The notes beneath the pieces were generated by a model that was given only the letters and a program-made list of their open reading frames with translations, was not told the origin of the DNA and ran no database searches. A stretch of 64,000 nucleotides of DNA from NCBI RefSeq assembly GCF_000244875.1, contig NC_016791.1, forward strand, positions 3,663,001 to 3,727,000, read 5' to 3'. A program made the translations under genes and the position numbers. This document shows positions 1 to 26,145 of the stretch, piece after piece (position 1 is the stretch's first letter; every line of letters begins with the position of its first letter). The DNA is from Clostridium sp. BNL1100 (GTDB lineage: Bacteria > Bacillota > Clostridia > Acetivibrionales > DSM-1351).

Positions 1-789
1 AGCAAAATTGTAGGTATCAGCCCTACGTTTGGAAAGGTTATAATAGGATCTCTTATCTACAATATTGGTTTTACTGGCTAATTGATTTCGTAATTTCAAG
101 ACATGATAGATATCTTTGTATTTTGTAGAATTCTTGTCTATGCGTACTGTTTTTGTAGGCAAATGGCAAGAATGAGGTATTTCATCACAATGGACAGTAT
201 TGCAAAACGCCCCCAGAAACATACACCAGTCATTCAATATAAAGGATTCAAATTCCTTTTTCTCACCAGTTTTAAACTGCTCTATACTTGTCCTTATATT
301 ATCTATAGACTCTTTACCCGGAAAAATAAACCGTTCAATATTTAACGGTTCAAAGAAGTCTAAAGTATAATGGTTTAAAGCACCGCATTCTCCACTTAAA
401 TGGATATTGCAGTCTATATTTTTCTCCCTCAAATAGCAGACTAATGCCACATCTGCAATAATAAAGGTATTTATTCCGCAGTCCTGCAGCATTTTAATCA
501 GATTCAGAATTAAAGGGTATTGCTCTTTAATGTAATACAAGGAATTTAATGTTACTTTAACATTAACCTTGTAAGTTTCTATCATTTTTTTTAATATTCT
601 AACGGAACTCATGGTACATATATTACAATTATCCAATAAATACTCACGACGATTTAAAGGCATTGTTACGTTGTACTTATCTAACCATTCAAAAGGTAAT
701 ATCCCGCAAAAAAATTCATCAGCACCAGCTTCTACCAGTGGAATATAATTATCCATATTCGATAGTGGAGTTACTACTTTCAAATTCAT
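1..789 (-). CDS. Peptidase U32-family (TIM-barrel) protein, 3'-truncated by window edge
   Basis: The reverse strand is open from an ATG at 789 to base 1 (263 codons) with no stop, so the C-terminus lies outside the window. The start reads MNLKVVTPLSN followed by LVEAGADEFFCG, the first strand and loop typical of U32 barrels. Later segments (TFIIADVALVCYLRE, IHLSGECGAL, RFIFPGKESI) fit successive barrel strands. GGAG lies only 2 nt before the ATG but 8 nt before an in-frame TTG at 783, so TTG may be the real start. Many U32 relatives (UbiU/UbiV, RlhA, TrhP) carry an Fe-S cluster and act in hydroxylation rather than proteolysis. The Cys residues here would allow that, but this is inference. It lies in the same orientation as the upstream genes and is probably the distal part of the LoaP-headed operon. 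Confidence 0.7.
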   Translation of the reverse strand, partial: MNLKVVTPLSNMDNYIPLVEAGADEFFCGILPFEWLDKYNVTMPLNRREYLLDNCNICTMSSVRILKKMIETYKVNVKVTLNSLYYIKEQYPLILNLIKMLQDCGINTFIIADVALVCYLREKNIDCNIHLSGECGALNHYTLDFFEPLNIERFIFPGKESIDNIRTSIEQFKTGEKKEFESFILNDWCMFLGAFCNTVHCDEIPHSCHLPTKTVRIDKNSTKYKDIYHVLKLRNQLASKTNIVDKRSYYNLSKRRADTYNFA

Positions 790-817
790 CACTCCTTCAA
801 AACTACATTTATTTTAA

Positions 818-2155
818 TTATAAATTAAGTACCAATCGGTCATAGCCCTGATTCAATAAATCTTCCAACAAGTTGGGATCAGTTATAACCCCACGGTTAA
901 ATCCAAATATACTGTTACCTTTTCCTACCATATATAGATGTTCAGGGTAAAGATATACAAATTCATTACAATATTGAGGACAGCTGGCAACTACCCCCTG
1001 CTTGGTTCGGTTATAAGTTGTACATTCAGCATTGAGGGGGCAATATAGAGATGAATTAGTCTGGAAATACGGAAAGTGAAAACTTAGCCCTCCACTAAAT
1101 CCATCAGGCCTTTTGTTCCGGAAATCAAACTCAATTCTTTTTATTTTCAGTTCTTGTAAAAAATTTGTAAAGTGACTCAGGTTCAAACTATTTTCTTCTA
1201 ATTTGTCTTTTACCTTGTCAATTCCCCACTTCCAAGGTATTTTTGTATCCTTGAGTTTCTTATTTATCATTCTGCCGTATGCCAGAGTAAATTTGGGAAA
1301 ATGTCTATTTAAATAATGCAGCATCCCCCAATCATTAATTACTAATTCTATAGTAATCCCCTTTTGCTCCTGCCATTGATATAAAAACTCTATTGTCTTT
1401 TCCATAGAGTTTACGTTGTCTTCTCTAATAAACGGAAACACAACGGTAATACCCAGATTTTGCTGCCAAGCCTTTTCAAGACAATTTTCAAGTAAATCTA
1501 TAGACGGAAACAAGTTGCAACAGAATTCGCTTCCGATATATACACGTTTAAATTCGGATATAATCCCATGGTCTTGTAAGCCCTTATCTTTTAATATTTC
1601 AGCAAACATTTTATCTGCCGGGCACTCTAAAAATTGATGATACAGCTCATTATTATCAAGAGTGAAGCACAATTCAAATTTCTGTGAAACTGTTCGGAAA
1701 CGGTGGTCCTCTTCAGTAGTAACAGATACCTGAAACCACTTTTTCTCCTGTCCTTCCCAGTCTGTACAGAAATCTTTATCGTTTTCCTTAGGATAAATTG
1801 GATTAGGCTCAACTATAGTTTTTAATGTTTCAATATCGCCGGCACCTTTTACATTGTCATCTATGAGAAATAGCTTCTTCATACAGGTAATATATTCTTG
1901 CGAGGGTTTGAGAAGTTCAATTTTATATATTACCGAAAAGGGCTTTTCTTGAAGTTCAATTATTCTTATCTCTGAAAAGGAAAAGCTTATGTATTGAAAT
2001 TTTTGAAAATCGAATACCTTTAAATCAAAAGAAGATAAATCAGGAATTTTTTCATCCGCCTCAAAGGTAATTATTTTCTCATCACTCTCTATTATCCTCA
2101 CATCTTTATCATTTATAAAACCGATTATAAATGCAGCTGGTAATGTTTTGCTCAT
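818..2155 (-). CDS. U32-like protein with extra N-terminal domain
   Basis: 445 aa from the preferred ATG at 2155, which has GTGAG 7 nt upstream; an ATG at 2173 lacks a Shine-Dalgarno. Residues 1 to about 150 form a beta-rich domain not recognised with confidence (a PilZ-like barrel is possible). Residues about 200-440 resemble the second half of U32-type proteins: ELVINDWGMLHYLNR and LAYGRMINKKLKD match the NDxG and xGR motifs of the 272-aa protein at 10931-11749. The C-terminal Cys residues (CPLNAEC, then CPQYC) could hold an Fe-S cluster. It starts 30 bp after the stop of the preceding gene and is followed 28 bp later by another U32-like gene, so the two may act as a pair, as UbiU and UbiV do. 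The substrate is unknown. Confidence 0.55.
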   Translation of the reverse strand: MSKTLPAAFIIGFINDKDVRIIESDEKIITFEADEKIPDLSSFDLKVFDFQKFQYISFSFSEIRIIELQEKPFSVIYKIELLKPSQEYITCMKKLFLIDDNVKGAGDIETLKTIVEPNPIYPKENDKDFCTDWEGQEKKWFQVSVTTEEDHRFRTVSQKFELCFTLDNNELYHQFLECPADKMFAEILKDKGLQDHGIISEFKRVYIGSEFCCNLFPSIDLLENCLEKAWQQNLGITVVFPFIREDNVNSMEKTIEFLYQWQEQKGITIELVINDWGMLHYLNRHFPKFTLAYGRMINKKLKDTKIPWKWGIDKVKDKLEENSLNLSHFTNFLQELKIKRIEFDFRNKRPDGFSGGLSFHFPYFQTNSSLYCPLNAECTTYNRTKQGVVASCPQYCNEFVYLYPEHLYMVGKGNSIFGFNRGVITDPNLLEDLLNQGYDRLVLNL

Positions 2156-2184
2156 ATTCAAACTCACTCTCATTTATATTAGGA

Positions 2185-3168
2185 TTACTTTAGTACCTTG
2201 TTGTTTAGGATTTCGATATCATCGCTCAAGAAATTCAGTATTATAGAGGTTAATTTATATTGCTGTTCTGATGAATCCAAATCAGACACAGGTATTCCTG
2301 TTTTACCCTCCATATACACCTGAAACCAAGGGTTAGATGCCTTTTCCTCAATTAACCCAAAAACTTTCAGACCACAACTATTAAGGTATTCAGCAGTTTC
2401 CTTTACCATTTCAGCTGAATCCTTGGAATGTATTGCAAGCAAGACCCCATCAGGTTTAAATAATTCTGCAAAATCCCATGAATTGAAAGAGTCAACTATA
2501 TTACTGTCTGTCTGAAATGGAAAGCCTTGGGCTGGCCCGTCAAAAATAATAATGGGACTTGTATCTGCATATTCTTCCTTCAAAAAGTTTATTGAAGTAT
2601 CAAAGGGCAGCAGACTTGATATGGGATTACTGCTCATAATAAAGCTTGGTAAGTGATACTTTTCGAGTGCCTTTGTAATTTTAAGTTCCACTGAATGAAT
2701 ATTAATTTCCTTTCTTGTGGCAGTAACCATGACAGACGGCTGTTCATTCAGCACCATCCGGTTATCTTCAATAATAGCAAGAATGGAATCATTAATTTTA
2801 TCAACTGAAATAGACCTTCTGCAATAAGTATCACAGGGTATGGATAATTCAAAATATGGACTGGCTACGGGAATGCCTAGTTCTGCAGCAGCATTCAGTA
2901 CCATTAAGTAATAATCATATTTTTCAGTCCATGGTGGTAACAGTAATGTTTTAGGGCTATTTTCCAAGATTAACACTAAATCGCATTGTTCCATCATACT
3001 TGTTATATTACTGTTAAAACCGCCGGATTTGTCTTTCTTGATATCAAGTTCATTAATTATGCTAATAATATTAAATGATAAGACATCTTGTAGCTGTAGC
3101 AAATTGCGAGCTATATAGTTATCAGGATACAAGATTACTTTTTTACCGGCTAATTCAGCTTTATTCAT
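2185..3168 (-). CDS. Unrecognised cytoplasmic protein of the LoaP cluster
   Basis: 327 aa, not assigned to a family. No signal peptide or membrane segment is visible. It starts MNKAELAGKKVILYPDN and alternates hydrophobic strands with helices (CDLVLILENSP, SPIIIFDGPAQG, GVLLAIHSKDS, LKVFGLIEEKAS), which suggests a two-part Rossmann-like alpha/beta fold. There is no P-loop and no Cys motif. Spacing is tight: 19 bp from the DUF362 gene upstream and about 30 bp to the U32-like gene downstream, so co-expression is likely. The Shine-Dalgarno (AAAGG) is 15 nt from the ATG, which is long. It could be a sugar- or nucleotide-binding accessory, but nothing in the sequence decides this. Confidence 0.5.
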   Translation of the reverse strand: MNKAELAGKKVILYPDNYIARNLLQLQDVLSFNIISIINELDIKKDKSGGFNSNITSMMEQCDLVLILENSPKTLLLPPWTEKYDYYLMVLNAAAELGIPVASPYFELSIPCDTYCRRSISVDKINDSILAIIEDNRMVLNEQPSVMVTATRKEINIHSVELKITKALEKYHLPSFIMSSNPISSLLPFDTSINFLKEEYADTSPIIIFDGPAQGFPFQTDSNIVDSFNSWDFAELFKPDGVLLAIHSKDSAEMVKETAEYLNSCGLKVFGLIEEKASNPWFQVYMEGKTGIPVSDLDSSEQQYKLTSIILNFLSDDIEILNNKVLK

Positions 3169-3187
3169 ACCGTAGAGTTTAAACCTT

Positions 3188-4270
3188 TCAAGAATTTATT
3201 TTTTTATATTTTATAGATAACGCTCCATGGAAGCAGATTTCATAACATCTGAAGCAATGCAGACAGGCGTTCTCATCTACTACAGGGTAAGGATCCATGG
3301 TAATTGCATTGGCAGGACATCCGTCGAGACACGCAGAACATTTGGAGCATTTGGAAGAATCGCACTGAATCTTACCAAGAACCAACTTTAGGAATCTTTC
3401 ACGTAATCCCCCCTGTAAAGTGGGTATTAAATTTGCGGTATGCAATATTCTTTCCCTATAGCAACTATCATCTATAAACAGGTTATCCAGATTAGATTCA
3501 CCAAGATTCCTCTCCGAGGCTCGTCCAATCATTTGCACATCATCAATTTTATAACCCAATAAGGTGGCACCAAGAGCATCAATTGCAACTGCATCCCGAG
3601 AAACAAGTAACACTCCAAAATTCACAGGATTACCATGTACAGGCCCTATGCCGTCCATTCCCCAAATACCATCCATTACCGTCAAATCAGGTACCCGGAC
3701 ACTAAATATATCTGTTAGCAGTTTTGAGAATTCTTCCTGAGTTTTATATTTATGCAATGCTTTTCTCTGCTCAAAAGCTACAGCTCCGAACATGTTTTTG
3801 ATTGCTCCCGTATATAATGTAAGAGCGTGAGTTTTTAATTTTGGCATTGATATCACCTTATCGGCTTGCAGTACATCAGAGCTATAAGAAATATCTTCTA
3901 CAATTGAATAATCTGACAAATGCACCTGTTGGAATTTTTCGAACAGAAAAGCCGGTACCTTCTCTTCCCGTGCGACATCCTCAATTCCAGTATCTTTAAT
4001 GGGAGATTTAATAGTAGCAGGTCCATCTCCTATAATCGGATGTCCTCCACACTCCTTAATCAGTCTAACCATCATTTTTACAAGAGCCGGATGGGTTGTA
4101 GCTGCTTGTTCCGGGCGAAAAGGCCCGGTTAAGTTTAATTTTAGCAGAACAGTATCTCCTGACTTTACAATACTGTCCAATCCACCTATAAACTCAAAAG
4201 ATTCTCTTAACGCCTTCAAAATCTCATTTTCATCATATGTTTTAGTTAATTTTAAAGAAATCTTATTCAT
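3188..4270 (-). CDS. DUF362 protein with C-terminal 2[4Fe-4S] ferredoxin domain
   Basis: 360 aa from the ATG at 4270, which has GAGGGG 5 nt upstream; the ATG at 4300 has no such site. The N-terminal 270 residues show DUF362 hallmarks: ECGGHPIIGDGP, MPKLKTHALTLYTGAIKN and SRDAVAIDALGA. The last 70 residues carry two Cys clusters, CSKCSACLDGC (with a preceding Cys) and CLHCFRCYEIC, as in bacterial 2[4Fe-4S] ferredoxins. DUF362-ferredoxin fusions are common in clostridia, but their reaction is largely undefined. In this cluster it is a good candidate electron donor for the radical SAM or U32-type proteins, which need low-potential electrons. That role is inferred from context only. Confidence 0.8.
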   Translation of the reverse strand: MNKISLKLTKTYDENEILKALRESFEFIGGLDSIVKSGDTVLLKLNLTGPFRPEQAATTHPALVKMMVRLIKECGGHPIIGDGPATIKSPIKDTGIEDVAREEKVPAFLFEKFQQVHLSDYSIVEDISYSSDVLQADKVISMPKLKTHALTLYTGAIKNMFGAVAFEQRKALHKYKTQEEFSKLLTDIFSVRVPDLTVMDGIWGMDGIGPVHGNPVNFGVLLVSRDAVAIDALGATLLGYKIDDVQMIGRASERNLGESNLDNLFIDDSCYRERILHTANLIPTLQGGLRERFLKLVLGKIQCDSSKCSKCSACLDGCPANAITMDPYPVVDENACLHCFRCYEICFHGALSIKYKKINS

Positions 4271-4312
4271 CAAACCCCTCATATCGTTGGTTATGAACAT
4301 CCAAAGGCATGT

Positions 4313-5944
4313 TTAAATTTTTAATGACCTTTGTATACTCATACCATATTTCAATTGAATTTTCTGAACCTTATAAATTTTCTCCTCTATTTTCAGTAAG
4401 TGATCTTTCAGTATTTCGGAAAATTCATTGTCCGAACCATCATTTTTCACCCAATCAATGCACTTTAAAAACCAAGTATGATTTAAATCATCAATATCCT
4501 TTCTCATATCCCTGACAGCTTCCTCAAGAATGGACAGATTGTCAGACAAATACTCATGTCCCAAAACACTTGATTTCAATAACCTTCTACGCATACGTGA
4601 TATGTATGTTACTAACTTAGTGATACCTTTGAAATGAAAAAATGCTTTTTCAGATAAAACAGTGTTAACAGTCAGCATTTTATCCGACAATCTCTTAACC
4701 CGCTCATCTAAAAACTTATAATCATATAAAGTGTAAATACCTTCACCTTGATTTAACAGCATGTTATCTTCCTGTAACTTTTGATATATGCGTGTATTCG
4801 GAAAAAGATATAATTTTGATGAATATGTACACAATGTATCAGCCAGTCCGATTCTTTTAAGAAAATCAGCATTAGCAGTTAAATCTTCAAAGGTACTGTA
4901 TGGATGGAACATAATAAAACCGCAATCAATATTTATATTGAATTTACTTGTTAAATCAACAAATGAAAAATAATTTTCTACTTTAGCCCGTTTGTTAAAT
5001 AGCTGTAAACTACTGTTGTTTCCTGCCTCTACACCAACAAGCACTGATTCAAGTCCGGCAAGATACAGCAATTCCATTAACTCAGAATCATCCTCTGACC
5101 AATTTTCTGCACGCATATGCGCAAGAAATGTAATGTCAAGGTCTGATTCTAAAATTAATTCTGCTATCTTTCTTATCCTTTCTTTACCCTTATGCCCCGG
5201 ATCTTCAAATGTAGGATCCAGAAAATTGAATTGTTTTATATTGTAGGTATTATTTAAATACTTTAATTCTTCAACAACATTTTCCGGGGATCTTCCTCTC
5301 CATACCGGGTCATTCTTGGTTCTTGTAGCCGGAATTGCACAGAAGGCACAGTTGCCCAGACATCCTCTTGCAGAAGAAATCCACATTGAGCTATAGTTGT
5401 GGAGCAGCTGTGAATCTCTCGCCGGAAAAGGTAACTCATCCAATGAACCAAGCGGACGATCATCGTTTGCAATAATTCGCCCATTGTCACGGTATGTAAT
5501 TCCCAAGCAAGAACTCAGATTTTCATTTTTGATAAACAAATCAACCAGTTCTGTAACTGTATTTTCACCTTCACCACGGATAATCACATCAATATCGGAA
5601 CATTGCTCCATAATCAGTTCTGTATTCATTGGTGCTGAATGATGACTCCAACCGGCTAGTACTATTTTGCACTCAGGTTTTTTAGATTTAACGTAACGTG
5701 AGAAGGATACCAACTCTGGAATATTTGAAGTACGAGGTATTGTAAAAACTACTACATCCGGCATGTTTTGCATTAATTTTACTAAATCCTCATCTTCACA
5801 GCCTCTGCTTATTTCATTTAAAGATGTTGAATGCCCTTCTTTTCTAAGCATTGCGATTATATACCCGGCAACCAAGTCATCAGCTGCTTCATAATCCTCG
5901 TAGTCATATAATAATGACACAACATTTATTTGATATTTACTCAT
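4313..5944 (-). CDS. B12-binding-domain radical SAM protein (paralogue 1)
   Basis: 543 aa. Residues about 1-140 form the cobalamin-binding-like Rossmann domain with the acidic turn IIRGEGENTV. The radical SAM motif is C195-x3-C199-x2-C202 within SARGCLGNCAFC, followed by WRGRSPENVVEEL, GLESVLVGVEAGN and a long helical C-terminus (about 400-543). The DxHxxG lower-ligand motif of classical B12 proteins is absent, as in many class B radical SAM methylases. It shares architecture and most motifs with the products of 6000-7637 and 9309-10934. The start has GAAGG 5 nt upstream. The expected chemistry is SAM cleavage at a [4Fe-4S] cluster with possible methylation or ring rearrangement; the substrate is unknown. 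It lies downstream of its closest paralogue with a 55 bp gap. Confidence 0.85.
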   Translation of the reverse strand: MSKYQINVVSLLYDYEDYEAADDLVAGYIIAMLRKEGHSTSLNEISRGCEDEDLVKLMQNMPDVVVFTIPRTSNIPELVSFSRYVKSKKPECKIVLAGWSHHSAPMNTELIMEQCSDIDVIIRGEGENTVTELVDLFIKNENLSSCLGITYRDNGRIIANDDRPLGSLDELPFPARDSQLLHNYSSMWISSARGCLGNCAFCAIPATRTKNDPVWRGRSPENVVEELKYLNNTYNIKQFNFLDPTFEDPGHKGKERIRKIAELILESDLDITFLAHMRAENWSEDDSELMELLYLAGLESVLVGVEAGNNSSLQLFNKRAKVENYFSFVDLTSKFNINIDCGFIMFHPYSTFEDLTANADFLKRIGLADTLCTYSSKLYLFPNTRIYQKLQEDNMLLNQGEGIYTLYDYKFLDERVKRLSDKMLTVNTVLSEKAFFHFKGITKLVTYISRMRRRLLKSSVLGHEYLSDNLSILEEAVRDMRKDIDDLNHTWFLKCIDWVKNDGSDNEFSEILKDHLLKIEEKIYKVQKIQLKYGMSIQRSLKI

Positions 5945-5999
5945 ATTACACCTTCTTTTTTATTTTTAAATGACCCATTTCCAGTAGTCAACATCAATA

Positions 6000-7637: not shown

Positions 7638-7645
7638 CATAGCAG

Positions 7646-9280: not shown

Positions 9281-9308
9281 ATTTTACATTCTCCTTTTCA
9301 GGCATCAT

Positions 9309-10934
9309 TTAAAATTTTAATTTTGAAATATCAATTTTATTTCGGTTCAGCTTACGCCAGAAATCAAACTGAATTCTTTTAACTTCTTCAATTTTTTCAG
9401 GTAAGTAATCTATAATATATCTTTTTACCAAACTATTGAAAATATCATCGGACCAAGTAGATTTAGCTAATTTCAAACATTCATTCAAAAATTCTGTATT
9501 GTTTTTCATCATTTCCATTGATAATTTATCGATATTATCTGCAAACTGTATAATTTCATCCTGCATCAGCCCTTTTGCATATAGTCTGCGCCAAATTCTA
9601 GCCAATAAAATTCTTAACCGTGTATTCACCAAATCAAATTCTTCAATAGACGCTACTTTTAAAGGCAATTCGCATAAACTGTCAGATAAAACCTTTATCC
9701 TTTCATCTACAAAACGATAATTAAATATATTTCCCTCATTAAATGAAGCTTTTTCAAGCAATCCATCCTGAGCGAGCTTCTCCTCGATGCTTACGCCGGG
9801 GTAGACTTCCAATCGTGTTAAAATACATTTAATATTATAGCCAAGCCCTGTATTGTGAAAGAATTGTATATTCTCATAACAATCTTCAAAAGAAGTATAG
9901 GGTTGAAACATTATAAAACCATACTCCAAGGAGATATGTGCATTTTTGAGTAAATTTACAATACGCACATTATCTTGCGGGGTAGCAATTTTACTGTATA
10001 CTTTCAGGGTTTTTGCACTTCCTGATTCTATTCCAACAACAACTGACTCAAGCCCAGATTCAAATAGCAATTCAAGTAAGGGCTGATCTTTTTCTGTCCA
10101 GTTTTCTGCTCTCATGTGTACTTCATAACTGATATCCAGATTTCGCTTAATAATTTCACGGGCAATTGCTTCGATTCGCTTTTTACCTTTTGAGCCGGGG
10201 TCTTCATATGTAACATCAGTAATAAAAAATGTGCTCATTCCATACTCTTTTACCAACTGCTCAATTTCATCTACCACGTTTTCCGGACTTCGCCCCCTCC
10301 AGACAGCAGTTCCTGCATTCCTCTTACTGGAATAACTGCAAAAAGAACAATGACCGAGGCATCCTCTGCTTGTTGAAAGTAATGCAATCGGTGGCTTTAC
10401 CTCAGCCTCTTTGTAGATATCCCGTGCCGGGAAAGCTAGTGAATCAAGATCACTTATACTTTCACGAGGTTGATTAAACCTTATTTTCTTATCCTCAAGC
10501 CGATATACTATCCCTGATACTTCTTTGAGCCGAATGGAATCATCATAGGAATCAAGAAGTTCACATAGAGTAATCTCACCTTCTCCCTGAGCAATATAAT
10601 CAACACATTCATTATCCGCCAAAATGCTTTCTGCTTCCTGAGCAGCTGCATGTCCTCCAAAAACTATATTTATTGATTTATCTATATTTTTTATCATCTT
10701 GCAAATTTCTATAATATTTGCCATGCTTTCAATAAATGTTGTAAAACCAATAAAATCAGGCTTAAATAATTTGATTTCTTCCAGCAGGGTTTGCGTATTC
10801 TGATTAACTTGGTATACGAATAATTTTACCTGATGGTTTTTTTGTCGTAACGCAGAAGCAATATAGCCTAAACCAATATGTTCAATAGTATCTGCACTGC
10901 GGCTCATAGGGTATATCAATAGTACTTTTTTCAT
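9309..10934 (-). CDS. B12-binding-domain radical SAM protein (paralogue 3)
   Basis: 541 aa. It starts MKKVLLIYPMSR, the first strand of a cobalamin-binding-like domain; VFGGHAAAQEAES replaces the HHSAP segment of the other two paralogues. The radical SAM motif is C192-x3-C196-x2-C199 (TSRGCLGHCSFC), followed by VWRGRSPENVVDEI and GLESVVVGIESGSAKTL. The helical C-terminus aligns with paralogues 1 and 2 but is more diverged. Its ATG overlaps the stop of the upstream gene by 4 bp, so translation is probably coupled. It is likely a C-methylating or rearranging enzyme of the pathway; the substrate is unknown. Confidence 0.85.
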   Translation of the reverse strand: MKKVLLIYPMSRSADTIEHIGLGYIASALRQKNHQVKLFVYQVNQNTQTLLEEIKLFKPDFIGFTTFIESMANIIEICKMIKNIDKSINIVFGGHAAAQEAESILADNECVDYIAQGEGEITLCELLDSYDDSIRLKEVSGIVYRLEDKKIRFNQPRESISDLDSLAFPARDIYKEAEVKPPIALLSTSRGCLGHCSFCSYSSKRNAGTAVWRGRSPENVVDEIEQLVKEYGMSTFFITDVTYEDPGSKGKKRIEAIAREIIKRNLDISYEVHMRAENWTEKDQPLLELLFESGLESVVVGIESGSAKTLKVYSKIATPQDNVRIVNLLKNAHISLEYGFIMFQPYTSFEDCYENIQFFHNTGLGYNIKCILTRLEVYPGVSIEEKLAQDGLLEKASFNEGNIFNYRFVDERIKVLSDSLCELPLKVASIEEFDLVNTRLRILLARIWRRLYAKGLMQDEIIQFADNIDKLSMEMMKNNTEFLNECLKLAKSTWSDDIFNSLVKRYIIDYLPEKIEEVKRIQFDFWRKLNRNKIDISKLKF

Positions 10935-11749
10935 TCTACTCCTTCACCTCTACTTATCTCAGGATATAAAGTAACTTGCCTGTCTATTTTTACTAAATGG
11001 TCTGATTTTACTTCTCTCAATAACACATTACCGTCCAATATTCCTGTCAAATTGCTGCAAGCATTTGAATTCGTCAAATTTGAATCCCTTTGATTATTTA
11101 TATATTCCAAAGGGATATATCTCTCACAGTCACATCTGCAGTCCGGAGGCAATTTCTGGTTAAGCCTTGCATGGGGACAGTAACGGAATACTGCCAGAAT
11201 AGCTTGATTAAAAAAACCATGGACAGCTATTTTTTCGTTCAAATTCCATTGTTGCAATGTTTTTGCTGTATTATCGAATATATTCATTTCAATACCGACA
11301 ACATTAAATTGTTTAAGAAGACCGATTTTATCTTCGGAAAAGATACATGACTGCAAAATATTCTGACGCCACTCTTTGGGATAACGTTCAGAAACAAGGT
11401 GTGCCAGCGGATGTTCTTCAAATGCCTTAATTAGAAGCCTTCCCGCAATTAATCTAATTCCTTTAATCTCATAAAGTCTAAGCATAGTTCCAAAATCATT
11501 GACAGTAACCTCTAAGGTACCAAGCTTTGAAGCAGCTGCTCTTATATAATTTTCAACGTAGTTCATTGATTGATTTAATATTTTTGGCAAGACCAATTTT
11601 ATTTTTGTCCTTTTTCCTGCCTCAACCAAAACGTCTAAATCAGGCAATCTTCCCAGACATCCCTCATGCCCCAATGAAATTGCATATGGTTTTTTTGCTA
11701 TAGCCTCATCTATTAGGCTATTATGTGTAATCCTTATTTCATGTTCCAT
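10931..11749 (-). CDS. Short U32-like protein (UbiV-like half)
   Basis: 272 aa. The order of strands and the motifs VTVNDFGTMLRLYE and IRLIAGRLLIKAFEEHP resemble the NDxG and GR motifs of U32-type proteins. They recur in the larger protein at 818-2155 (NDWG, YGR). Near the C-terminus CRCDCERY supplies three close Cys residues for a possible Fe-S cluster. It overlaps the upstream U32 gene by 11 bp and the downstream radical SAM gene by 4 bp, which points to coupled translation and to a U32 pair like UbiU/UbiV. The function is not known. The pairing suggests an Fe-S-dependent hydroxylation or sulfur/oxygen transfer step rather than proteolysis. Confidence 0.6.
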   Translation of the reverse strand: MEHEIRITHNSLIDEAIAKKPYAISLGHEGCLGRLPDLDVLVEAGKRTKIKLVLPKILNQSMNYVENYIRAAASKLGTLEVTVNDFGTMLRLYEIKGIRLIAGRLLIKAFEEHPLAHLVSERYPKEWRQNILQSCIFSEDKIGLLKQFNVVGIEMNIFDNTAKTLQQWNLNEKIAVHGFFNQAILAVFRYCPHARLNQKLPPDCRCDCERYIPLEYINNQRDSNLTNSNACSNLTGILDGNVLLREVKSDHLVKIDRQVTLYPEISRGEGVE

Positions 11750-12737: not shown

Positions 12738-12754
12738 AGCTAATACCTCTTTGT

Positions 12755-14659: not shown

Positions 14660-14690
14660 TGAATTACTCTCTTTTCGATAATAATATAGT

Positions 14691-16103
14691 TTAATTCGCT
14701 TTTAATTTTCTGACATATGTCAAAGGAAGCGGTTTTGACTTAATTTTATATCTGATTACTTTTTTTAAAAGACTAAAGGGCATATGCAAACAAATCCATC
14801 TCCATAAAACAATTTGAGATTTTTTAGGATTTGAAATTATTTTAAAAAGTGAGGATAACCAGTAGAGCCTTATAGTATCCTCCCATCCATAGTCCTTAAT
14901 ATGAAAAAGGTCACTTACAATTTCGCTTAGCTCTGTTTTAGGGAATAAAATGATAGTTTCCAGTGCGTCCGTTTCAGAAGTAATTTGTAAAATAGAATCT
15001 CCCTCATTTGTTTTGCCGATATTTTTAGTTTCGGTAATTAAATCAAATGTGGTAAAATCCAACAAGTTAAATGTAACAAACTTTATCTTTGTTTTTGTAT
15101 AATTGATTATCCTCATAGTTTTTATCATTTCTTCATTTTTCTTTAACCTTTTACGGTTAACAGGATTTAGGCTTTCCAGCCCGTACTCGATATATATGCA
15201 GCCGGATTCTTGCATCAAATCCACAAGTTCCTTTGTCATTATATCCGGACGGCACTGGCATCCGTATGAAATATTCAAATCCTTTAATTGTCTTAAAAAA
15301 CTACGGAAATTATCATTATCAACATTAAAAATATCGTCAATAAAGAATATGTAATCTACTCCATACTCATCCTTGACCATCTTTACTTCATTAATAATTT
15401 TATCTGCAGGCTTTACCCTATATGCCTGACGAAAGCCTTTTCTGAAGCAGAAAGCACAATTAAACATACAACCCCTGGAATATTCGAGAAGAACTCCTCT
15501 TTGAAAATTGAACTCGGGGTCGTTAACCCATGAATGACAATGGTATTTTTCCATTTCAAGCAAATGAAATGCCGGCTGTGGTAATTCCGAAAGATCACTT
15601 ACAACAGCAGAGGTATTATTTCTTATATCACGGCCATATAAGCCTGTGATATGTATGTTTTGAAAACTGCTGTCAACGAATTCTTTTAAAGCAAGTTCAG
15701 GCTCACCGCATATAATAAAATCAGCTCCGCTTTTCTTCAACGTCCAATCCGGTTCTATTGTTCCGTGTGGTCCTATCAGGAGTGTTTTAACTTTTATATG
15801 TTTTTTGATTGTTTTGATAGTTTGGCTGACAACCTCAATATCAGGAAAACAGCATCTCCAGAATAAGTATGTATTTGCCGTACAAGTAACCACTATATCA
15901 GGCTCTATATCAGATATCTTTAATGCAATTTCTTCCAACGATAAATCATCACGAAAAGCATCAACAAGATAGACTGAATGATTTTGCTCTAACAATGCTC
16001 CAATATAGCATAACTCTATAGGCTGATAAGGTCTCGTACTACCTAAATCAGGATAAATACTGTCATGATAGCGCCAATTACATTGTAATAATATAACTTT
16101 CAT
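14691..16103 (-). CDS. B12-binding-domain radical SAM protein (divergent)
   Basis: 470 aa from the ATG at 16103 (AGG 5 nt upstream); a GTG two codons earlier is possible. It begins MKVILLQCNWRY. The B12-like domain contains LLIGPHGTIEPDW and FIICGEPELAL, the acidic turn being shortened. The radical SAM motif is C212-x3-C216-x2-C219 (YSRGCMFNCAFC), followed by KPADKIINEVKMV, DYIFFIDDIFNVD and CIYIEYGLESLNP. It resembles Mg-protoporphyrin cyclase- or hopanoid-type members more than the three WRGRSPENV paralogues. It follows the ABC ATPase gene by 12 bp. The substrate is unknown. Confidence 0.82.
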   Translation of the reverse strand: MKVILLQCNWRYHDSIYPDLGSTRPYQPIELCYIGALLEQNHSVYLVDAFRDDLSLEEIALKISDIEPDIVVTCTANTYLFWRCCFPDIEVVSQTIKTIKKHIKVKTLLIGPHGTIEPDWTLKKSGADFIICGEPELALKEFVDSSFQNIHITGLYGRDIRNNTSAVVSDLSELPQPAFHLLEMEKYHCHSWVNDPEFNFQRGVLLEYSRGCMFNCAFCFRKGFRQAYRVKPADKIINEVKMVKDEYGVDYIFFIDDIFNVDNDNFRSFLRQLKDLNISYGCQCRPDIMTKELVDLMQESGCIYIEYGLESLNPVNRKRLKKNEEMIKTMRIINYTKTKIKFVTFNLLDFTTFDLITETKNIGKTNEGDSILQITSETDALETIILFPKTELSEIVSDLFHIKDYGWEDTIRLYWLSSLFKIISNPKKSQIVLWRWICLHMPFSLLKKVIRYKIKSKPLPLTYVRKLKAN

Positions 16104-16115
16104 AAACACCTGTCT

Positions 16116-17081: not shown

Positions 17082-17094
17082 ATGACTTTTCTCC

Positions 17095-19371: not shown

Positions 19372-19385
19372 AAACCCTACCCAGC

Positions 19386-20525
19386 TTACTTATGTATTTT
19401 GTTTTTATACAACAACAATTCTTCAACGATTTCATCCAAGTGAACCCGGGTATTACATAATACTTTCTGATTACATGTTTTTTGCCAGCATGGAGCACAT
19501 TCCACATCGGCTTTAAATTTTTTGCCTCCAAAGAATAGTTGTACCTCTTGCTCACACGAAGGCCCAAACCAAGCTACACAGGGTTTTCCTACTGCTATAC
19601 CCATATGCAATCCCAAAGAGCATCCGCTGAAAACAATATCACACATACTTGTATATGCTATTCCATAGGATAAATCTTTTGTATTTGTTAAATTGATTAC
19701 ATTTTTATCAATGGAAGAAAGATATTGATTTATTTCTTCTTCTTCCTTGCCACCCAATAATAAAACCTGACAATCCTTTTCTTTTTCTATCAGGCTTTTA
19801 ATAATTTTCTCATTTGCATCCCTTGGCAATTTACGAAGAGGCATTAAATCAGAACATCCGGTGTTAATACCAATAAGAAACGCATCTTTCCGTATTCCTT
19901 TTTCCTTAAAAGTGCTTTCCTTTATGCTCTCATGCTTACTGGTTACTGTAATGGTATAGGGTTCATTCTGATACGCCAATCCCAAGCTTTCAACCATGAT
20001 TTGTGCCATAGACTTTGTATTTATTTTAAAGCGGAGTTTATCATCAATCCCCAATTTATATAAATACTCAAATTCTTCGTTAAAATAATTGATACTCCCA
20101 TAACTGTCCAAACCAAATCCATACTTTTTATCAGCATTAATTATATTGGCCAGTGCAGATACATGACGTGTTCTGTCAAGATTTACAACGATATCAAATT
20201 TTATCTGTGATAAAAACAAAACTGTTTCCGGATTCCAGACAATTAATTCATCTATGTATTGATTGTTTTCCATTATAGGCACTGCAGCTTTTGAGGTTAA
20301 AAACGTTATTTTACTGCTTTTGTATTCTCGTTTTAGCGGCTGCAATACTGAGGATGCCATCAAAACTGCCCCTAAGCCAAGCAAGCTGATAACTAAGATA
20401 CGTTTTTCAACAAGCTGCGGGGTATTGCAATCCTCACAGACCTTGTAAGGAGCACACGGCTTATATCCGTTAAATTTGATACATTGCTGATATAATTCCA
20501 CCTTTTTATTTGAATTATCAATCAT
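19386..20525 (-). CDS. Glycosyltransferase family 9 protein
   Basis: 379 aa, normal for GT9. ILVISLLGLGAVLMASSVLQPL matches the N-terminal Rossmann motif. GINTGCSDLMPLRKLP marks the start of the donor-binding half, and FSGCSLGLHMGIAVGKP with AWFGP is the donor-site signature. Cys residues cluster at the N-terminus (CAPYKVCEDCNTP) and near the C-terminus (CAPCWQKTCNQKVLC), an unusual Cys-rich arrangement also seen in GT9 relatives linked to radical SAM clusters. The start overlaps the stop of the upstream radical SAM gene by 4 bp. It probably adds a sugar to the same acceptor as its 758-aa neighbour. Confidence 0.85.
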   Translation of the reverse strand: MIDNSNKKVELYQQCIKFNGYKPCAPYKVCEDCNTPQLVEKRILVISLLGLGAVLMASSVLQPLKREYKSSKITFLTSKAAVPIMENNQYIDELIVWNPETVLFLSQIKFDIVVNLDRTRHVSALANIINADKKYGFGLDSYGSINYFNEEFEYLYKLGIDDKLRFKINTKSMAQIMVESLGLAYQNEPYTITVTSKHESIKESTFKEKGIRKDAFLIGINTGCSDLMPLRKLPRDANEKIIKSLIEKEKDCQVLLLGGKEEEEINQYLSSIDKNVINLTNTKDLSYGIAYTSMCDIVFSGCSLGLHMGIAVGKPCVAWFGPSCEQEVQLFFGGKKFKADVECAPCWQKTCNQKVLCNTRVHLDEIVEELLLYKNKIHK

Positions 20526-21616: not shown

Positions 21617-21624
21617 AGTACTCC

Positions 21625-22422: not shown

Positions 22423-22424
22423 TA

Positions 22425-23237: not shown

Positions 23238-23288
23238 TTTCTGCTCCTAATAAAATAATACTATTCGTCCTGTCTTTTCTGCCTAAAA

Positions 23289-23552
23289 TCAACCTACTTC
23301 GCTTAATTTCTTTTCAACATACTCTGCTAAATTTTTGGTTGTTCGTATAAGCTCTGTGTTCAAGTCATCATCATCAACTTGAATATTAAACAGTTCTTCG
23401 ATTTTTACAAGAATACTGATGGCATCAATTGAATTAATTCCTATGCTCTGAACAATATCCACATCATCGCGAAGCATCTCATCACTAATCTCTCGATTTA
23501 CAGTCTCCTTTATAGCTTTGTTTATTGTTTCATAAATTTGAGATATATCCAT
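23289..23552 (-). CDS. Stand-alone acyl carrier protein
   Basis: 87 aa from the ATG at 23552 (AAGGAAAG about 9 nt upstream); a longer reading to 23669 is rejected because it runs into the deacetylase gene. The four-helix carrier fold is clear. The phosphopantetheine site is Ser41 in GINSIDAISILVKIEELF, with Asn in place of the usual Asp before Ser. The protein is acidic, with EELFNIQVDDDDL as helix III. It would carry an acyl or aminoacyl group as a thioester. No ligase, ketosynthase or NRPS domain is present in the window, so loading must come from the part of the cluster outside it, or from another locus. BtrH-like proteins further upstream are possible partners. Confidence 0.92.
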   Translation of the reverse strand: MDISQIYETINKAIKETVNREISDEMLRDDVDIVQSIGINSIDAISILVKIEELFNIQVDDDDLNTELIRTTKNLAEYVEKKLSEVG

Positions 23553-23652
23553 ATGTATACTCTTTCCTTTCTTAGATTTAGAATATATATTAATAGAGTT
23601 CTCTATTAAATACTTTGTTTGATATGTACATGTAGCTAAAGCTACTTTAAAG

Positions 23653-24375: not shown

Positions 24376-24410
24376 ATCCCTTACTCCATACAAACCGAAG
24401 AACTAATTTA

Positions 24411-25343
24411 TTAACTTTTCTCTGTTAGATAATCACAAAACTTATAAACATCTTTAATCTCATTAAGTAACAGCTTTGGTAGCAATTTAATAATAGGGTC
24501 CTGATGTTTCATGTAAAAGAGCTCATATGCTTTCAACAAAGCTTCTTTATAATTTTGTCTTAAATGAGTGATATGGTAATTACAAGCTTTATCTAAGTAT
24601 AGAATTTTAACTCCTTTTTTTTGTAGTCTGTATCCCATTTCTACATCTTCGCATCCCCACAGTCTACCAAAGGATTCATCGAAACCGTCAACGTTTTCAA
24701 AAACTTCCTTTTTGCCTGAAAGGTTAGCCCCTGTACACCCTATAAAGTCTAGCTTATGCAGGTTCTCATGTTGTATTGCTCTTGTTAATATAGTAAAAAT
24801 ATATTTTTCAAATGAGGATGTCCGTTTCTGTTTATCAATTTTTTCAAGTGTTCTGACATCTTCTGTAGTAATCAAATAATTTGTTAATCCGGAAGTATCA
24901 GTATTAAGTGATAAAGTATCTGATTGTAAAATAGTTCCCAAAGACGGATCACTAAAAAATTTCAAGTATGGCAGTTCATATATTTTTCCATGAACTATAG
25001 AATTATCAAACTTTTGATGTAATTCATAGTGGCTACTTATAAAAGCATTTGACAGAATAACATCATCATCAACGAAAACCACAATAGACGCATCTGCTGC
25101 ATTCAAACCAGTATTTCTTGCATGTGAGCGTCCGGAATTATTTTGATATATATAGTTTATATTCAATTTAGTAATGTAATCATTTACGACATTTGATGTA
25201 TCATCCGTTGAACCGTCATCGACAATAATTACCTTAAATTGCTCTTTAGGCATTATTTGATAACATAACGATTCAAGTACCAGCCTTAATCGTGTAGATT
25301 TATTATATGTAGGAATAATTAAATCAATTAAATATGTTTCCAT
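24411..25343 (-). CDS. GT2 (GT-A fold) glycosyltransferase
   Basis: 310 aa. LIDLIIPTYNKSTRLRLVLESL is the N-terminal nucleotide-binding start; VIIVDDGSTDDT and VVFVDDDVIL give the acidic DDD metal site. Later GCTGANLSGKKEVF and GRLWGCEDVEMGYRLQKKG supply the catalytic ED motif. It is the first gene after loaP (about 95 bp gap). No clear Shine-Dalgarno lies before the ATG, which is unusual in this locus and might mean translational control in the antitermination leader. A cytoplasmic NDP-sugar transferase is expected; donor and acceptor are unknown. Confidence 0.92.
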   Translation of the reverse strand: METYLIDLIIPTYNKSTRLRLVLESLCYQIMPKEQFKVIIVDDGSTDDTSNVVNDYITKLNINYIYQNNSGRSHARNTGLNAADASIVVFVDDDVILSNAFISSHYELHQKFDNSIVHGKIYELPYLKFFSDPSLGTILQSDTLSLNTDTSGLTNYLITTEDVRTLEKIDKQKRTSSFEKYIFTILTRAIQHENLHKLDFIGCTGANLSGKKEVFENVDGFDESFGRLWGCEDVEMGYRLQKKGVKILYLDKACNYHITHLRQNYKEALLKAYELFYMKHQDPIIKLLPKLLLNEIKDVYKFCDYLTEKS

Positions 25344-25438
25344 TTTATTTTAAAATTGTAAAGTGTTGATTTAGTAATCATCCAGAAATCGAAAAACATA
25401 TTGGTGTATTATTTTATTTATATATCCTTAAGAAAAAT

Positions 25439-26002
25439 TTATGATATTTTCTCAATAACATCTAGTGATACACTAACCAGCCTTATCTCTCCCATAAAAT
25501 TTAACTCAATCGTTGCTAAGTGTTTATGCCTGTTTACCTTCTTAATAATACATTCTTTGCCTTTGAGAGGCCCTTCTTCTATATAAATTTTGCTACCTTC
25601 TTTGATAGCGATTGATGACTCAATACAATGCTTATCATCACACAAGCTAAGTAATAATTGTTTTTCAGTTTCCCTCAAGGCGATCTCAGTATCCGAGTAT
25701 CTTAAGAGATGGTTTATGTTATCAATATAAGAAATAATATCACTTATTTCTTTTGTAAATTCATGTTGTGACAATTTAGACTCAATAAAGATATATCCTG
25801 GGAATAACGGTTTTACTTCATATTTTATAACTCCCTGCTTCTTAAATACAGTTTTTAAGAGGGGTATAAATGGAATAAACAAATCATTATCCAGTATTTT
25901 ACTTAAAAGTTTTTTAACTTTTTCCTCCATACCTGTCCGGATAGATAACACATACCAGTACAATAATTTCACGTCCTCATAATTTAACTTTGCCGTTTGC
26001 AC
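25439..26002 (-). CDS. loaP: LoaP-type transcription antiterminator (NusG paralogue)
   Basis: 187 aa from a GTG at 26002 (AAAGGG 7 nt upstream). The NGN domain has WYVLSIRTGMEEKVKKLL, and PFIPLLKTVFKKQG with KPLFPGYIFIES are characteristic of LoaP rather than general NusG. The C-terminal KOW domain reads GSKIYIEEGPLKGKECIIKKV and NRHKHLATIELNFMG. LoaP proteins bind RNA polymerase and a leader RNA hairpin and allow read-through of terminators in long biosynthetic operons. Its position at the head of a 25 kb unidirectional set of genes fits exactly. It has its own near-consensus promoter, and a hairpin in its leader may be used for autoregulation. Confidence 0.95.
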   Translation of the reverse strand: MQTAKLNYEDVKLLYWYVLSIRTGMEEKVKKLLSKILDNDLFIPFIPLLKTVFKKQGVIKYEVKPLFPGYIFIESKLSQHEFTKEISDIISYIDNINHLLRYSDTEIALRETEKQLLLSLCDDKHCIESSIAIKEGSKIYIEEGPLKGKECIIKKVNRHKHLATIELNFMGEIRLVSVSLDVIEKIS

Positions 26003-26032
26003 AGCTTCGCCCTTTCACTTATCAAAAAATAA

Positions 26033-26075
26033 GCTACGCTAATTGTAAATATGTTTCTTATCATTAGCTAACGTG
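26033..26075 (-). promoter_or_regulatory. Leader hairpin before loaP, possible attenuator or LoaP target
   Basis: In the roughly 105 nt leader between the promoter and the loaP start, GCTAAT (reverse strand, 26068-26063) can pair with ATTAGC (26043-26038), extended imperfectly by flanking bases. A run of T (TTATTTTTT on the reverse strand) follows. It looks like a weak intrinsic terminator. LoaP systems use a leader hairpin, so it may be a control element. Pairing was read by eye. Confidence 0.35.
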
Positions 26076-26115
26076 ACCCACCAACGATTAACCAATCTGA
26101 CTAAGTATTTCCTCA

Positions 26116-26145
26116 ATTATACCCCAACTATTACATTTAAGTCAA
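26116..26145 (-). promoter_or_regulatory. Sigma-A type promoter of loaP and the downstream operon
   Basis: On the reverse strand TTGACT (26145-26140) and TATAAT (26121-26116) are separated by 18 bp. This is the best promoter match seen upstream of loaP. Transcription would begin near 26108 and read through loaP toward base 1. Confidence 0.75.

What the first reader, a model, noticed from the sequence alone, without database searches (positions are those of the whole stretch)
1..26145. LoaP-headed, 25 kb single-strand biosynthetic locus with no megasynthase
Seen: one promoter, a LoaP-type gene, then about 20 genes in one direction with overlaps or short gaps. They include six radical SAM enzymes, several U32-like proteins, a carbamoyltransferase, an ACP, a PIG-L deacetylase, three glycosyltransferases, a DUF362 ferredoxin and an exporter. 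Known: LoaP drives antitermination of long polyketide or polysaccharide operons. Inference: the product is a glycosylated, carbamoylated compound built without NRPS or PKS, of a kind not familiar to me.
Basis: partly seen in the sequence, partly recalled or inferred. Interest (0 to 1): 0.85.

Follow-up and report, generated by a model that had tools for sequence, protein, structure and literature searches.

The report
Oxygen-free natural-product operon under LoaP
A run of more than twenty genes in an anaerobic bacterium related to Ruminiclostridium papyrosolvens looks like the recipe for an unknown exported small molecule, and it appears to use two pairs of enzymes that may add oxygen atoms to molecules without using oxygen gas.

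Summary
21 minus-strand genes run from loaP (26002) to 818 with gaps of at most about 100 nt: six radical SAM enzymes, carbamoyltransferase, carrier protein, PIG-L deacetylase, three glycosyltransferases, ABC exporter, no megasynthase. The window cuts the operon: a fourth U32 gene (792 to -227) and a stand-alone AMP-ligase, which could load the carrier protein, follow. Among the genomes searched the cluster was seen only here and in Ruminiclostridium papyrosolvens C7, under purifying selection.

The UbiU side is well supported; the UbiV side rests on position, four invariant cysteines and weak profile similarity. U32c/U32d relatives are adjacent in 10 of 10 loci found, and lie in 7 of 7 quinohemoprotein amine dehydrogenase operons examined. 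I read them as O2-independent hydroxylases, here in a small-molecule pathway. (2) A covarying leader RNA of about 110-125 nt, without an Rfam match, precedes loaP and recurs in 22 of 58 genomes of the order; 23 of 34 copies examined lie before loaP or a loaP fragment.

The product is unknown; the chemistry is inferred; no structure model could be run.

The parts
25998..26121 (-). LoaP leader RNA element (model R1), about 110-125 nt, upstream of loaP
   Evidence: Model R1 hit 107.1 bits (this copy is in the training set); Rfam search: only a SNORD93 match of 20.3 bits, gathering score 60
26116..26145 (-). candidate sigma-A promoter TTGACT-N18-TATAAT
   Evidence: 11 of 12 matches, best in its scan; conserved own vs R. 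papyrosolvens C7
25439..26002 (-). loaP (probable true start TTG at 25963)
   Evidence: NF033641 171.1 bits, cut-off 125; start by comparison with genus homologues and leader position
24411..25343 (-). GT2 glycosyltransferase
   Evidence: PF00535
23653..24393 (-). PIG-L type deacetylase
   Evidence: PF02585; BshB1-like below cut-off
23289..23552 (-). stand-alone acyl/aminoacyl carrier protein (start corrected)
   Evidence: PF00550; ribosome-binding site at Met40 and a stop in the upstream extension in C7
22425..23237 (-). ABC-2 type permease 1
   Evidence: PF06182
21625..22467 (-). ABC-2 type permease 2
   Evidence: PF06182
20522..21616 (-). rSAM_F, SPASM/twitch-like radical SAM
   Evidence: PF04055; NF033640 below cut-off
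19386..20525 (-). GT9a glycosyltransferase
   Evidence: PF01075
17095..19371 (-). GT9b glycosyltransferase with N- and C-terminal extensions
   Evidence: PF01075
16116..17111 (-). ABC exporter ATPase (DrrA-like)
   Evidence: PF00005; TIGR01188 216.6 bits, cut-off 312.45
14691..16109 (-). rSAM_E, B12-binding radical SAM
   Evidence: PF02310+PF04055; TIGR04295 236.7 bits, cut-off 400
12755..14659 (-). rSAM_D, B12-binding radical SAM
   Evidence: PF02310+PF04055
11739..12737 (-). U32a, UbiU-like subunit of pair 1
   Evidence: PF01136 90.6 bits; hhalign to E. coli UbiU 99.0%; UbiU/TrhP models below cut-off
10931..11749 (-). U32b, UbiV-like candidate subunit of pair 1
   Evidence: Cys C31/191/204/208, CXnCX12CX3C, the UbiV spacing, invariant in 14 aligned U32b/U32c-type sequences; hhalign to U32c family 98%; no Pfam hit; UbiV profile only 7%
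9309..10934 (-). rSAM_C, B12-binding radical SAM
   Evidence: PF02310+PF04055
7646..9280 (-). NodU/CmcH-type carbamoyltransferase
   Evidence: PF02543+PF16861
6000..7679 (-). rSAM_B, B12-binding radical SAM
   Evidence: PF04055; PF02310 29.1 bits, cut-off 32.1
4313..5944 (-). rSAM_A, B12-binding radical SAM, 51% identical to rSAM_B
   Evidence: PF02310+PF04055; alignment
3188..4270 (-). DUF362 protein with two [4Fe-4S] ferredoxin motifs (start corrected)
   Evidence: PF04015, Fer4; start
2185..3168 (-). g20, 327 aa protein of unknown fold
   Evidence: no Pfam or NCBIfam hit, no meaningful PDB hit; found in 2 of 391 genomes of the class
818..2173 (-). U32c, UbiV-like candidate subunit of pair 2 with a ~200 aa N-terminal extension
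   Evidence: four Cys invariant in 12 aligned sequences: 218, 378, 398, 402; UbiV profile 60%, E 9e-5; no Pfam hit
1..792 (-). U32d, UbiU-like subunit of pair 2 (gene runs to window position -227)
   Evidence: PF01136 73.6 bits; ORF in L089; hhalign to E. coli UbiU 99.2%

Best explanation
This is a LoaP-controlled operon for an exported small molecule, made on a stand-alone carrier protein rather than on an NRPS/PKS. RNA polymerase starts at 26145-26116 and transcribes a structured leader. LoaP binds to or near that leader and lets the polymerase cross a transcript of about 29 kb. The AMP-ligase left of the window activates an acid and loads the 87-aa carrier protein. The deacetylase and three glycosyltransferases build or attach (amino)sugars. 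Five B12-radical SAM enzymes and one SPASM-like radical SAM carry out C-methylation or other radical steps. A NodU-type enzyme adds a carbamoyl group, and the three-part ABC transporter exports the product. The four U32-type proteins act as two heterodimeric, [4Fe-4S]-containing pairs of UbiU:UbiV type (U32a:U32b and U32d:U32c). They hydroxylate the molecule without O2, probably with an organic oxygen donor as UbiUV does; the DUF362 ferredoxin may supply electrons. Shown here: gene content, extent, conservation, LoaP family, leader RNA, adjacency and cysteines of the U32-type proteins, and UbiU homology of U32a and U32d. Inferred: the UbiV role of U32b and U32c, every catalytic step, the substrate, the oxygen donor and the product.
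For: Families. Set conserved in R. papyrosolvens C7 (Gfo/Idh and ROK apart) with dN/dS 0.04-0.33 for the 24 genes measured. LoaP above its curated cut-off. Leader RNA: 41 places in 22 of 58 genomes of the order; loaP or a loaP fragment close downstream in 23 of 34 loci examined, 13 of the 24 not used for training; 37 cells with two-sided changes against 10.0 in shuffles, 0 of 500 reaching it. U32d~U32a 99.8%, U32d~UbiU 99.2%, U32a~UbiU 99.0%, U32c~U32b 98.0%. Four cysteines invariant in 14 U32b/U32c-type sequences. U32c- and U32d-type genes adjacent in 10 of 10 loci. Pair present in 7 of 7 qhp operons examined, no further ORF of 200 aa or more between qhpA and qhpE, where Gram-negatives use the flavin hydroxylase QhpG (PMC7876137, abstract start and passages). 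UbiU-UbiV heterodimer and Cys motifs from PMC6747719 (passages).
Against: No product, enzyme assay or transcript data. U32b and U32c are not found by PF01136. Against single E. coli UbiV neither was significant; against a seven-sequence UbiV profile U32c reached 60% (E 9e-5) and U32b 7%; U32c against the U32d family 48%, and U32b against the U32a family 0.3%. As a yardstick, the UbiV profile itself reaches only 68% against the U32d family. Intrinsic terminators inside the operon are not above chance, so the need for antitermination is not visible in sequence. The leader lacks the UNCG hairpin known from B. velezensis. In the leader alignment one partner-slid control (+3) also shows 10 pairs with two-sided changes, though far fewer paired cells. 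No phosphopantetheinyl transferase or acyltransferase was recognised in the operon. The Gfo/Idh gene is only a remnant in C7 and ROK is absent there. In qhp operons QhpG could be encoded elsewhere; this was not tested.
Confidence: 0.6

Rival explanations
1. The operon builds or decorates a cell-surface glycan: GT2, two GT9, PIG-L, a NodU-type carbamoyltransferase and an ABC-2 exporter are also polysaccharide genes, and NusG paralogues are known at such operons (recalled).
For: GT2 is best matched by EpsD, 153.5 bits against a cut-off of 370. In L082 a GT9-DUF362-B12 radical SAM-GT2 run sits near polymerase- and acyltransferase-like genes (the latter read by eye). A manC-like gene lies just upstream.
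Against: Carrier protein plus AMP-ligase, six radical SAM and four U32-type proteins are not usual in glycan operons (recalled). No initiating transferase, flippase or polymerase was recognised among the 26 genes scanned. The exporter resembles the one in a LoaP-headed NRPS-like cluster of the genus (51% ATPase in L142) and one in a P. albidus cluster (40%, L008).
Confidence: 0.2
2. The U32-type proteins are peptidases or RNA-modifying enzymes, not small-molecule hydroxylases.
For: The Pfam name is 'Peptidase U32'. Characterised relatives modify rRNA and tRNA (reviewed in PMC11574389, passages).
Against: They keep Cys patterns of the Fe-S type and sit as pairs in biosynthetic or cofactor operons. 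The genome has three further U32-bearing genes, near 192, 1030 and 1441 kb, that could do the RNA work.
Confidence: 0.15
3. It is a RiPP pathway, with the radical SAM and U32-type proteins acting on a peptide.
For: A SPASM/twitch-like radical SAM is present. L164 (G246) is a RiPP-like locus with a U32 pair, a B12 radical SAM and a SPASM enzyme.
Against: The largest gap in the operon is about 100 nt, so a usual precursor gene does not fit in a gap. The only small gene is a PP-binding carrier protein. A precursor encoded elsewhere was not searched for.
Confidence: 0.06
4. It is an aminoshikimate/kanosamine-type pathway: the HAD, ROK and Gfo/Idh genes left of the window resemble the trio of AHBA clusters (resemblance recalled).
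For: The HAD protein is best matched by AHBA_synth_RP, 171.4 bits against a cut-off of 246.65.
Against: ROK is a chromosomal gene beside GH43 in G009, which lacks the cluster. ROK is missing and Gfo/Idh is a remnant in C7. No aminotransferase-type gene is among the 26 genes scanned.
Confidence: 0.04

Closest known systems
LoaP-controlled difficidin and macrolactin operons of Bacillus velezensis
   Same: LoaP-family regulator, long biosynthetic operon, structured RNA in the 5' leader
   Different: those are PKS operons with a UNCG hairpin and leader terminator (PMC12691694, passages); here there is no megasynthase and a different, covarying leader RNA
Closthioamide pathway (Ruminiclostridium cellulolyticum)
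   Same: anaerobic genus, stand-alone carrier proteins instead of a canonical NRPS (PMC6772006, passages)
   Different: no thioamide (CtaC/AANH-type), ATP-grasp or transglutaminase domain recognised here; B12 radical SAM, U32 and sugar genes instead
UbiU:UbiV O2-independent hydroxylase of ubiquinone synthesis
   Same: adjacent U32-type genes, one UbiU-like, the other with CXnCX12CX3C (U32b) or CXnCX19CX3C (U32c) cysteines
   Different: 18-21% identity to UbiU, only weak profile similarity to UbiV, no quinone genes recognised among the 26 scanned, two pairs in one operon
Nod-factor (lipochitooligosaccharide) gene set
   Same: GT2, deacetylase, carrier protein, NodI-like ATPase and NodU-like carbamoyltransferase as a logic
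   Different: Nod models that matched stay far below their cut-offs; no NodA-like gene recognised; radical SAM and U32 enzymes have no counterpart
Tunicamycin cluster (recalled)
   Same: radical SAM, glycosyltransferase, PIG-L, carrier protein, ABC transporter
   Different: no nucleoside genes recognised; B12 radical SAM, U32 and carbamoyltransferase genes are extra

Membership tests
LoaP antiterminators | score above the curated NF033641 cut-off | tested here: met
   171.1 bits, cut-off 125
LoaP antiterminators | UNCG-type hairpin in the leader, as in B. velezensis | tested here: not met
   no UNCG stem of 4 or more pairs with at least 2 G-C pairs in 26700-24801; another conserved leader RNA is present
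LoaP antiterminators | readthrough of terminators in the target operon | not testable with these tools
   needs transcription data; terminator-like sites not above chance
UbiU:UbiV-type U32 hydroxylase pairs | two adjacent genes of the two subunit types | tested here: met
   U32a/U32b overlap, U32c/U32d adjacent; adjacent in 10 of 10 other U32c-family loci
UbiU:UbiV-type U32 hydroxylase pairs | four Fe-S cysteines in each subunit | tested here: met
   U32b C31/191/204/208 and U32c C218/378/398/402 invariant in 14 sequences together; U32d C190/197/209/268; U32a C189/208/233/236 invariant in 3 sequences, its C182 not kept in L087
UbiU:UbiV-type U32 hydroxylase pairs | homology of one subunit to UbiU | tested here: met
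   U32d 99.2%, U32a 99.0%
UbiU:UbiV-type U32 hydroxylase pairs | homology of the other subunit to UbiV | tested here: inconclusive
   single UbiV not significant; seven-sequence UbiV profile 60% for U32c, 7% for U32b; no PF01136 hit
UbiU:UbiV-type U32 hydroxylase pairs | O2-independent hydroxylation with prephenate as oxygen donor | not testable with these tools
   needs biochemistry
B12-dependent radical SAM enzymes | B12-binding and radical SAM domains with CxxxCxxC | tested here: met
   rSAM_B B12 domain is 3 bits below the cut-off
named B12 radical SAM subfamilies (BchE, HpnJ, PhpK, TIGR04295 and others) | NCBIfam cut-off | tested here: not met
   best 236.7 bits against 400 (TIGR04295, rSAM_E); the other four at most 134.6 against 481.35
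NRPS or PKS pathway | multidomain condensation/adenylation or ketosynthase protein | tested here: not met
   no such domain in the 26 genes scanned
carrier-protein (thiotemplated) pathway | carrier protein with Ser motif plus activating ligase | tested here: met
   PF00550 with GINSIDA; PF00501+PF13193 ligase at L089:4813-6261
Nod-factor synthesis | Nod model cut-offs | tested here: not met
   NodU 157.9 bits against 1000, NodC 32.1 against 550, NodI 131.3 against 521

The most novel reading that the evidence does not exclude
UbiU:UbiV-like U32 pairs are a general O2-independent hydroxylase module that anaerobic pathways use where aerobes use monooxygenases. This operon would use two of them to oxygenate a non-NRPS/PKS metabolite, and Bacillota qhp operons would use the same module in place of QhpG to make the tryptophylquinone cofactor. 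The leader RNA would be the recognition element of a LoaP regulon in this order of Clostridia.
Probability: 0.45. Interest if true: 0.88.

Novelty: new variant of a known kind. Interest (0 to 1): 0.72.

Why it matters
Anaerobes cannot use P450s or flavin monooxygenases, and how they oxygenate secondary metabolites is an open question. Two U32 pairs in one pathway would be a directly testable answer. The qhp operons would give a second system, with known chemistry (tryptophan dihydroxylation), for the same module. The leader RNA offers a way to list LoaP-controlled clusters in a whole order by sequence alone. The literature searches I made listed no paper whose title or abstract start treats U32 oxidases in a natural-product pathway; I saw the listings (10, 14 and 15 rows, the last of 49 papers) and passages of a few papers, and subscription papers are missing from that library.

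Tried and rejected
UNCG hairpin search around loaP: nothing in this locus; stems turned up in 3 of 19 loaP loci of the genus and were not followed. Folding the leader and the loaP-GT2 gap alone: no better than shuffles; of five leaders folded singly only L114 stands out, z -2.06, so the structure rests on covariation. PDB sequence search with U32a, U32c and g20: no meaningful hit. The genome-contig search with rSAM_C kept the best 80 of 105 relatives; only L005 (R. papyrosolvens C7) carries the cluster, the other loci that show more than one of our families share two to four weak matches. An AHBA/kanosamine reading of the HAD-ROK-Gfo/Idh trio was dropped after ROK proved to be a backbone gene in G009 and Gfo/Idh a remnant in C7. 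A RiPP reading was put low for lack of room for a precursor. Nod-factor membership was dropped on cut-offs. The labels downstream of leader-RNA sites (PaaK-like, acc, NRPS, PKS) were read by eye, without a family search; 8 of the 10 genus sites without loaP were viewed (L192 and L196 were not), and one of the 8 (L212, 36 bits) showed a lone MBL-fold-like gene and no larger biosynthetic operon. Outside the genus 12 of the 21 leader-RNA places were held as loci and examined.

Full report
What is there. The window is 3663001-3727000 of a 4.61 Mb single-contig genome. It belongs to the same genus as G005, whose contig matches that of Ruminiclostridium papyrosolvens C7 in length and gene positions; 24 cluster genes compared there are 88-98% identical in protein. 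On the minus strand 21 ORFs run from loaP (26002) to 818 with overlaps or gaps of at most about 100 nt. Corrections: the carrier protein starts near 23552 and is 87 aa; DUF362 starts near 4270; loaP probably starts at a TTG at 25963.

The window cuts the operon. The neighbouring stretch (L088, L089) carries U32d (window 792 to -227), an AMP-ligase with AMP-binding and C-terminal domains (-240 to -1688), a Gfo/Idh oxidoreductase (-1699 to -2811), a ROK kinase and a HAD phosphatase, then topB. In C7 the Gfo/Idh gene is a 47-residue remnant and ROK is absent; HAD is intact. ROK is present at 88% in G009, beside the GH43 and AraC genes and without the cluster. So ROK is chromosomal background. I take the pathway as loaP to the AMP-ligase, with Gfo/Idh uncertain.

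Distribution and selection. U32b: 3 of 100 relatives match (own, G005 at 92%, G004 at 24%). g20: 2 of 391 genomes of the class (own and G005). TopB is in 11 of 11 genus genomes. In six other genus genomes the 20 kb next to topB was looked at and lacks the cluster. dN/dS between the two species is 0.04 to 0.33 over 24 genes (Gfo/Idh and ROK left out because C7 lacks them intact). The pathway is kept by selection in two sister species and was not seen elsewhere in these samples, which do not cover all genomes.

LoaP and the leader RNA. The genus has 19 LoaP genes above the cut-off in 11 genomes, at least one in each. Some head other clusters: PKS-like in G002, NRPS-like in G001 and G008 (read by eye and by AMP-ligase matches). 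The region upstream of this loaP is conserved in C7 from the -35 box to the gene, while the sequence further upstream diverges. A core GTTAATCG...CACGTTAAC...GGGCGAAGC was found upstream of other loaP genes. Ten sequences gave model R1. It has 22 places in 9 of 11 genus genomes at E up to 0.1 and 41 places in 22 of 58 genomes of the order, 10 of 30 genera, at E up to 0.001. Of the 34 loci held, loaP or a loaP fragment lies just downstream in 23: 12 of 22 in the genus, ten of which trained the model and two of which are fragments, and 11 of 12 outside it. Of the ten genus sites without loaP eight were viewed; seven head operons that by eye are NRPS, PKS, acetyl-CoA-carboxylase(-plus-PKS) or PaaK-like ones, and one weak site does not. 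In the 35-sequence alignment 10 of 19 pairs show two-sided changes (1 of 500 shuffles reaches this) in 37 cells against 10.0 in shuffles (0 of 500). Partner-slid controls have 7 to 15 such cells and 19-44% of cells paired against 90.7%, but one of them (+3) also has 10 such pairs. That alignment is fitted to the model and leans towards it; the ten-sequence MAFFT alignment gave 6 pairs, 2 of 500 shuffles reaching it. Rfam has no match for it (one stray snoRNA hit below its gathering score; none in six other loci at E up to 1). In B. velezensis LoaP uses a UNCG hairpin in the leader and antagonises NusA (PMC12691694, abstract and passages). Here no UNCG hairpin is present. My reading is that R1 is this group's LoaP recognition or control element; binding is untested.

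The U32 pairs. U32a and U32d match Peptidase_U32, and their NCBIfam matches are UbiU and TrhP, far below the equivalog cut-offs. U32b and U32c have no PF01136 hit, in hmmscan or in the genome-wide search. A search with U32c found relatives in 10 other genomes among 398 of the phylum, and in all 10 a U32d relative is the neighbouring gene. Profiles relate U32c to U32b (98.0%, E 2e-13), U32d to U32a (99.8%, E 1e-28), and U32d and U32a to E. coli UbiU (99.2% and 99.0%). The U32b profile found the U32c-type genes in 7 of those 10 genomes, E 2e-11 to 1e-3. For the UbiV side: single E. coli UbiV is not significant against either. A profile of seven UbiV-type sequences (E. coli and six plasmid records) matches the U32c family at 60% (E 9e-5), with the first cluster cysteine aligned, and U32b at 7%. 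U32c against the U32d family is 48%, and U32b against U32a 0.3%; the UbiV profile itself against the U32d family is 68%, so weak cross-similarity between the two subunit types is seen for UbiV too. Cysteines: U32b has C31, C191, C204, C208, the same CXnCX12CX3C spacing that binds the cluster in UbiV; these four are invariant in an alignment of 14 U32b- and U32c-type sequences (one of the twelve U32c-type sequences, L170, was left out as a near-copy of L168). U32d has CX6C plus C209 and C268; U32a has C189, C208, C233 and C236 kept in three sequences. UbiU and UbiV form a heterodimer with one [4Fe-4S] each and are needed for O2-independent hydroxylation (PMC6747719, passages). An organic oxygen donor, prephenate, is reported for the ubiquinone case and suggested for the family (PMC11574389, passages).

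An independent context. One U32c/U32d pair (G290, L162) lies in an operon with the quinohemoprotein amine dehydrogenase alpha subunit. A search for that subunit in the order of G290 found 8 of 199 genomes. Seven were examined (G290 and six fetched; the eighth hit is weak with a stop and was not fetched). A further hit in the phylum sample, G222, lies on a 7 kb contig that ends in the second gene and says nothing. In 7 of 7 the pair lies between the qhpB-like and qhpF-like genes, and no other ORF of 200 aa or more lies between qhpA and qhpE. In Gram-negatives the tryptophan dihydroxylation is done by the flavoprotein QhpG (PMC7876137, abstract start and passages). The gene names B, D, E, F in these loci rest on order and similarity to L162; only the alpha subunit was named by its own family models. 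This fits a hydroxylase role for such pairs, although QhpG was not searched for elsewhere in those genomes.

Mechanism proposed. Ligase loads the carrier protein; glycosyltransferases and PIG-L handle sugars; B12 radical SAM enzymes methylate or rearrange; two U32 pairs hydroxylate; the NodU-type enzyme carbamoylates; the ABC exporter releases the product. The order, substrate and product are inference. The five B12 radical SAM enzymes reach no named subfamily's cut-off, so their reactions cannot be assigned.

Comparison with known things. It works like a LoaP-controlled antibiotic operon and like a stand-alone carrier-protein pathway such as closthioamide (PMC6772006, passages). It is not an NRPS/PKS cluster, not a Nod-factor cluster, and its radical SAM enzymes belong to no named pathway at cut-off. 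A Paenibacillus albidus locus (L008) shows similar parts (B12 radical SAM, SPASM radical SAM, Gfo/Idh, AMP-ligase, carrier protein, a 40% ATPase; mostly by eye) but no match to the four U32 proteins at E up to 1e-4. The literature searches listed no description of this cluster, of U32 oxidases in a natural-product pathway or of this leader RNA; only listings and passages were seen, and subscription papers are missing from that library.

Limits. No expression data, no chemistry, no structure model (nine tries, service busy). Promoter and terminator scans are near chance, so the single transcript is an inference from gene spacing, the conserved leader and LoaP.

Noticed in passing
L162, L220-L225 (G290, G828, G970, G852, G854, G904, G984): 7 of 7 quinohemoprotein amine dehydrogenase operons examined in one Bacillota order carry a U32c-like plus U32d-like pair between the qhpB- and qhpF-like genes, with no other ORF of 200 aa or more between qhpA and qhpE.
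   Followed up: partly
L164:5460-11893 (G246): RiPP-like locus: SPASM radical SAM, B12-binding radical SAM, U32c-like protein with an N-terminal extension, U32d-like protein and (by eye) an M50-like membrane protein.
   Followed up: no
window:38156-42824: Lanthipeptide-type locus on the plus strand: 57-aa possible precursor, a short SPASM-only protein, a LanM-like enzyme (DUF4135 + LANC_like) and an FMN reductase.
   Followed up: no
window:33300-34700: ORF that joins a truncated subtilase to a GHKL ATPase domain, as if two genes had been fused by a deletion.
   Followed up: no
L133:633-14648 (G009, between topB and ROK): About 14 kb of mobile-looking DNA (by eye recombinase-like genes and a large helicase-like protein) at the site that carries the cluster in the window genome: a variable site.
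   Followed up: no
L205 (G002:C1:1960000-1975000): Two R1 leader elements, each followed by a short loaP fragment; one precedes a gene set that by eye has an AANH (PP-loop) protein, KASIII-like protein, carrier protein and AMP-ligase.
   Followed up: partly
L008 (Paenibacillus albidus): Another cluster without megasynthase: corrinoid protein, B12 radical SAM, three SPASM-type radical SAM, Gfo/Idh, AMP-ligase, carrier protein and DrrA-like ATPase (most labels by eye).
   Followed up: no
L085/L090 (R. papyrosolvens C7): Gfo/Idh reduced to a remnant and ROK missing between the AMP-ligase and the HAD gene, while the other cluster genes compared are intact.
   Followed up: yes
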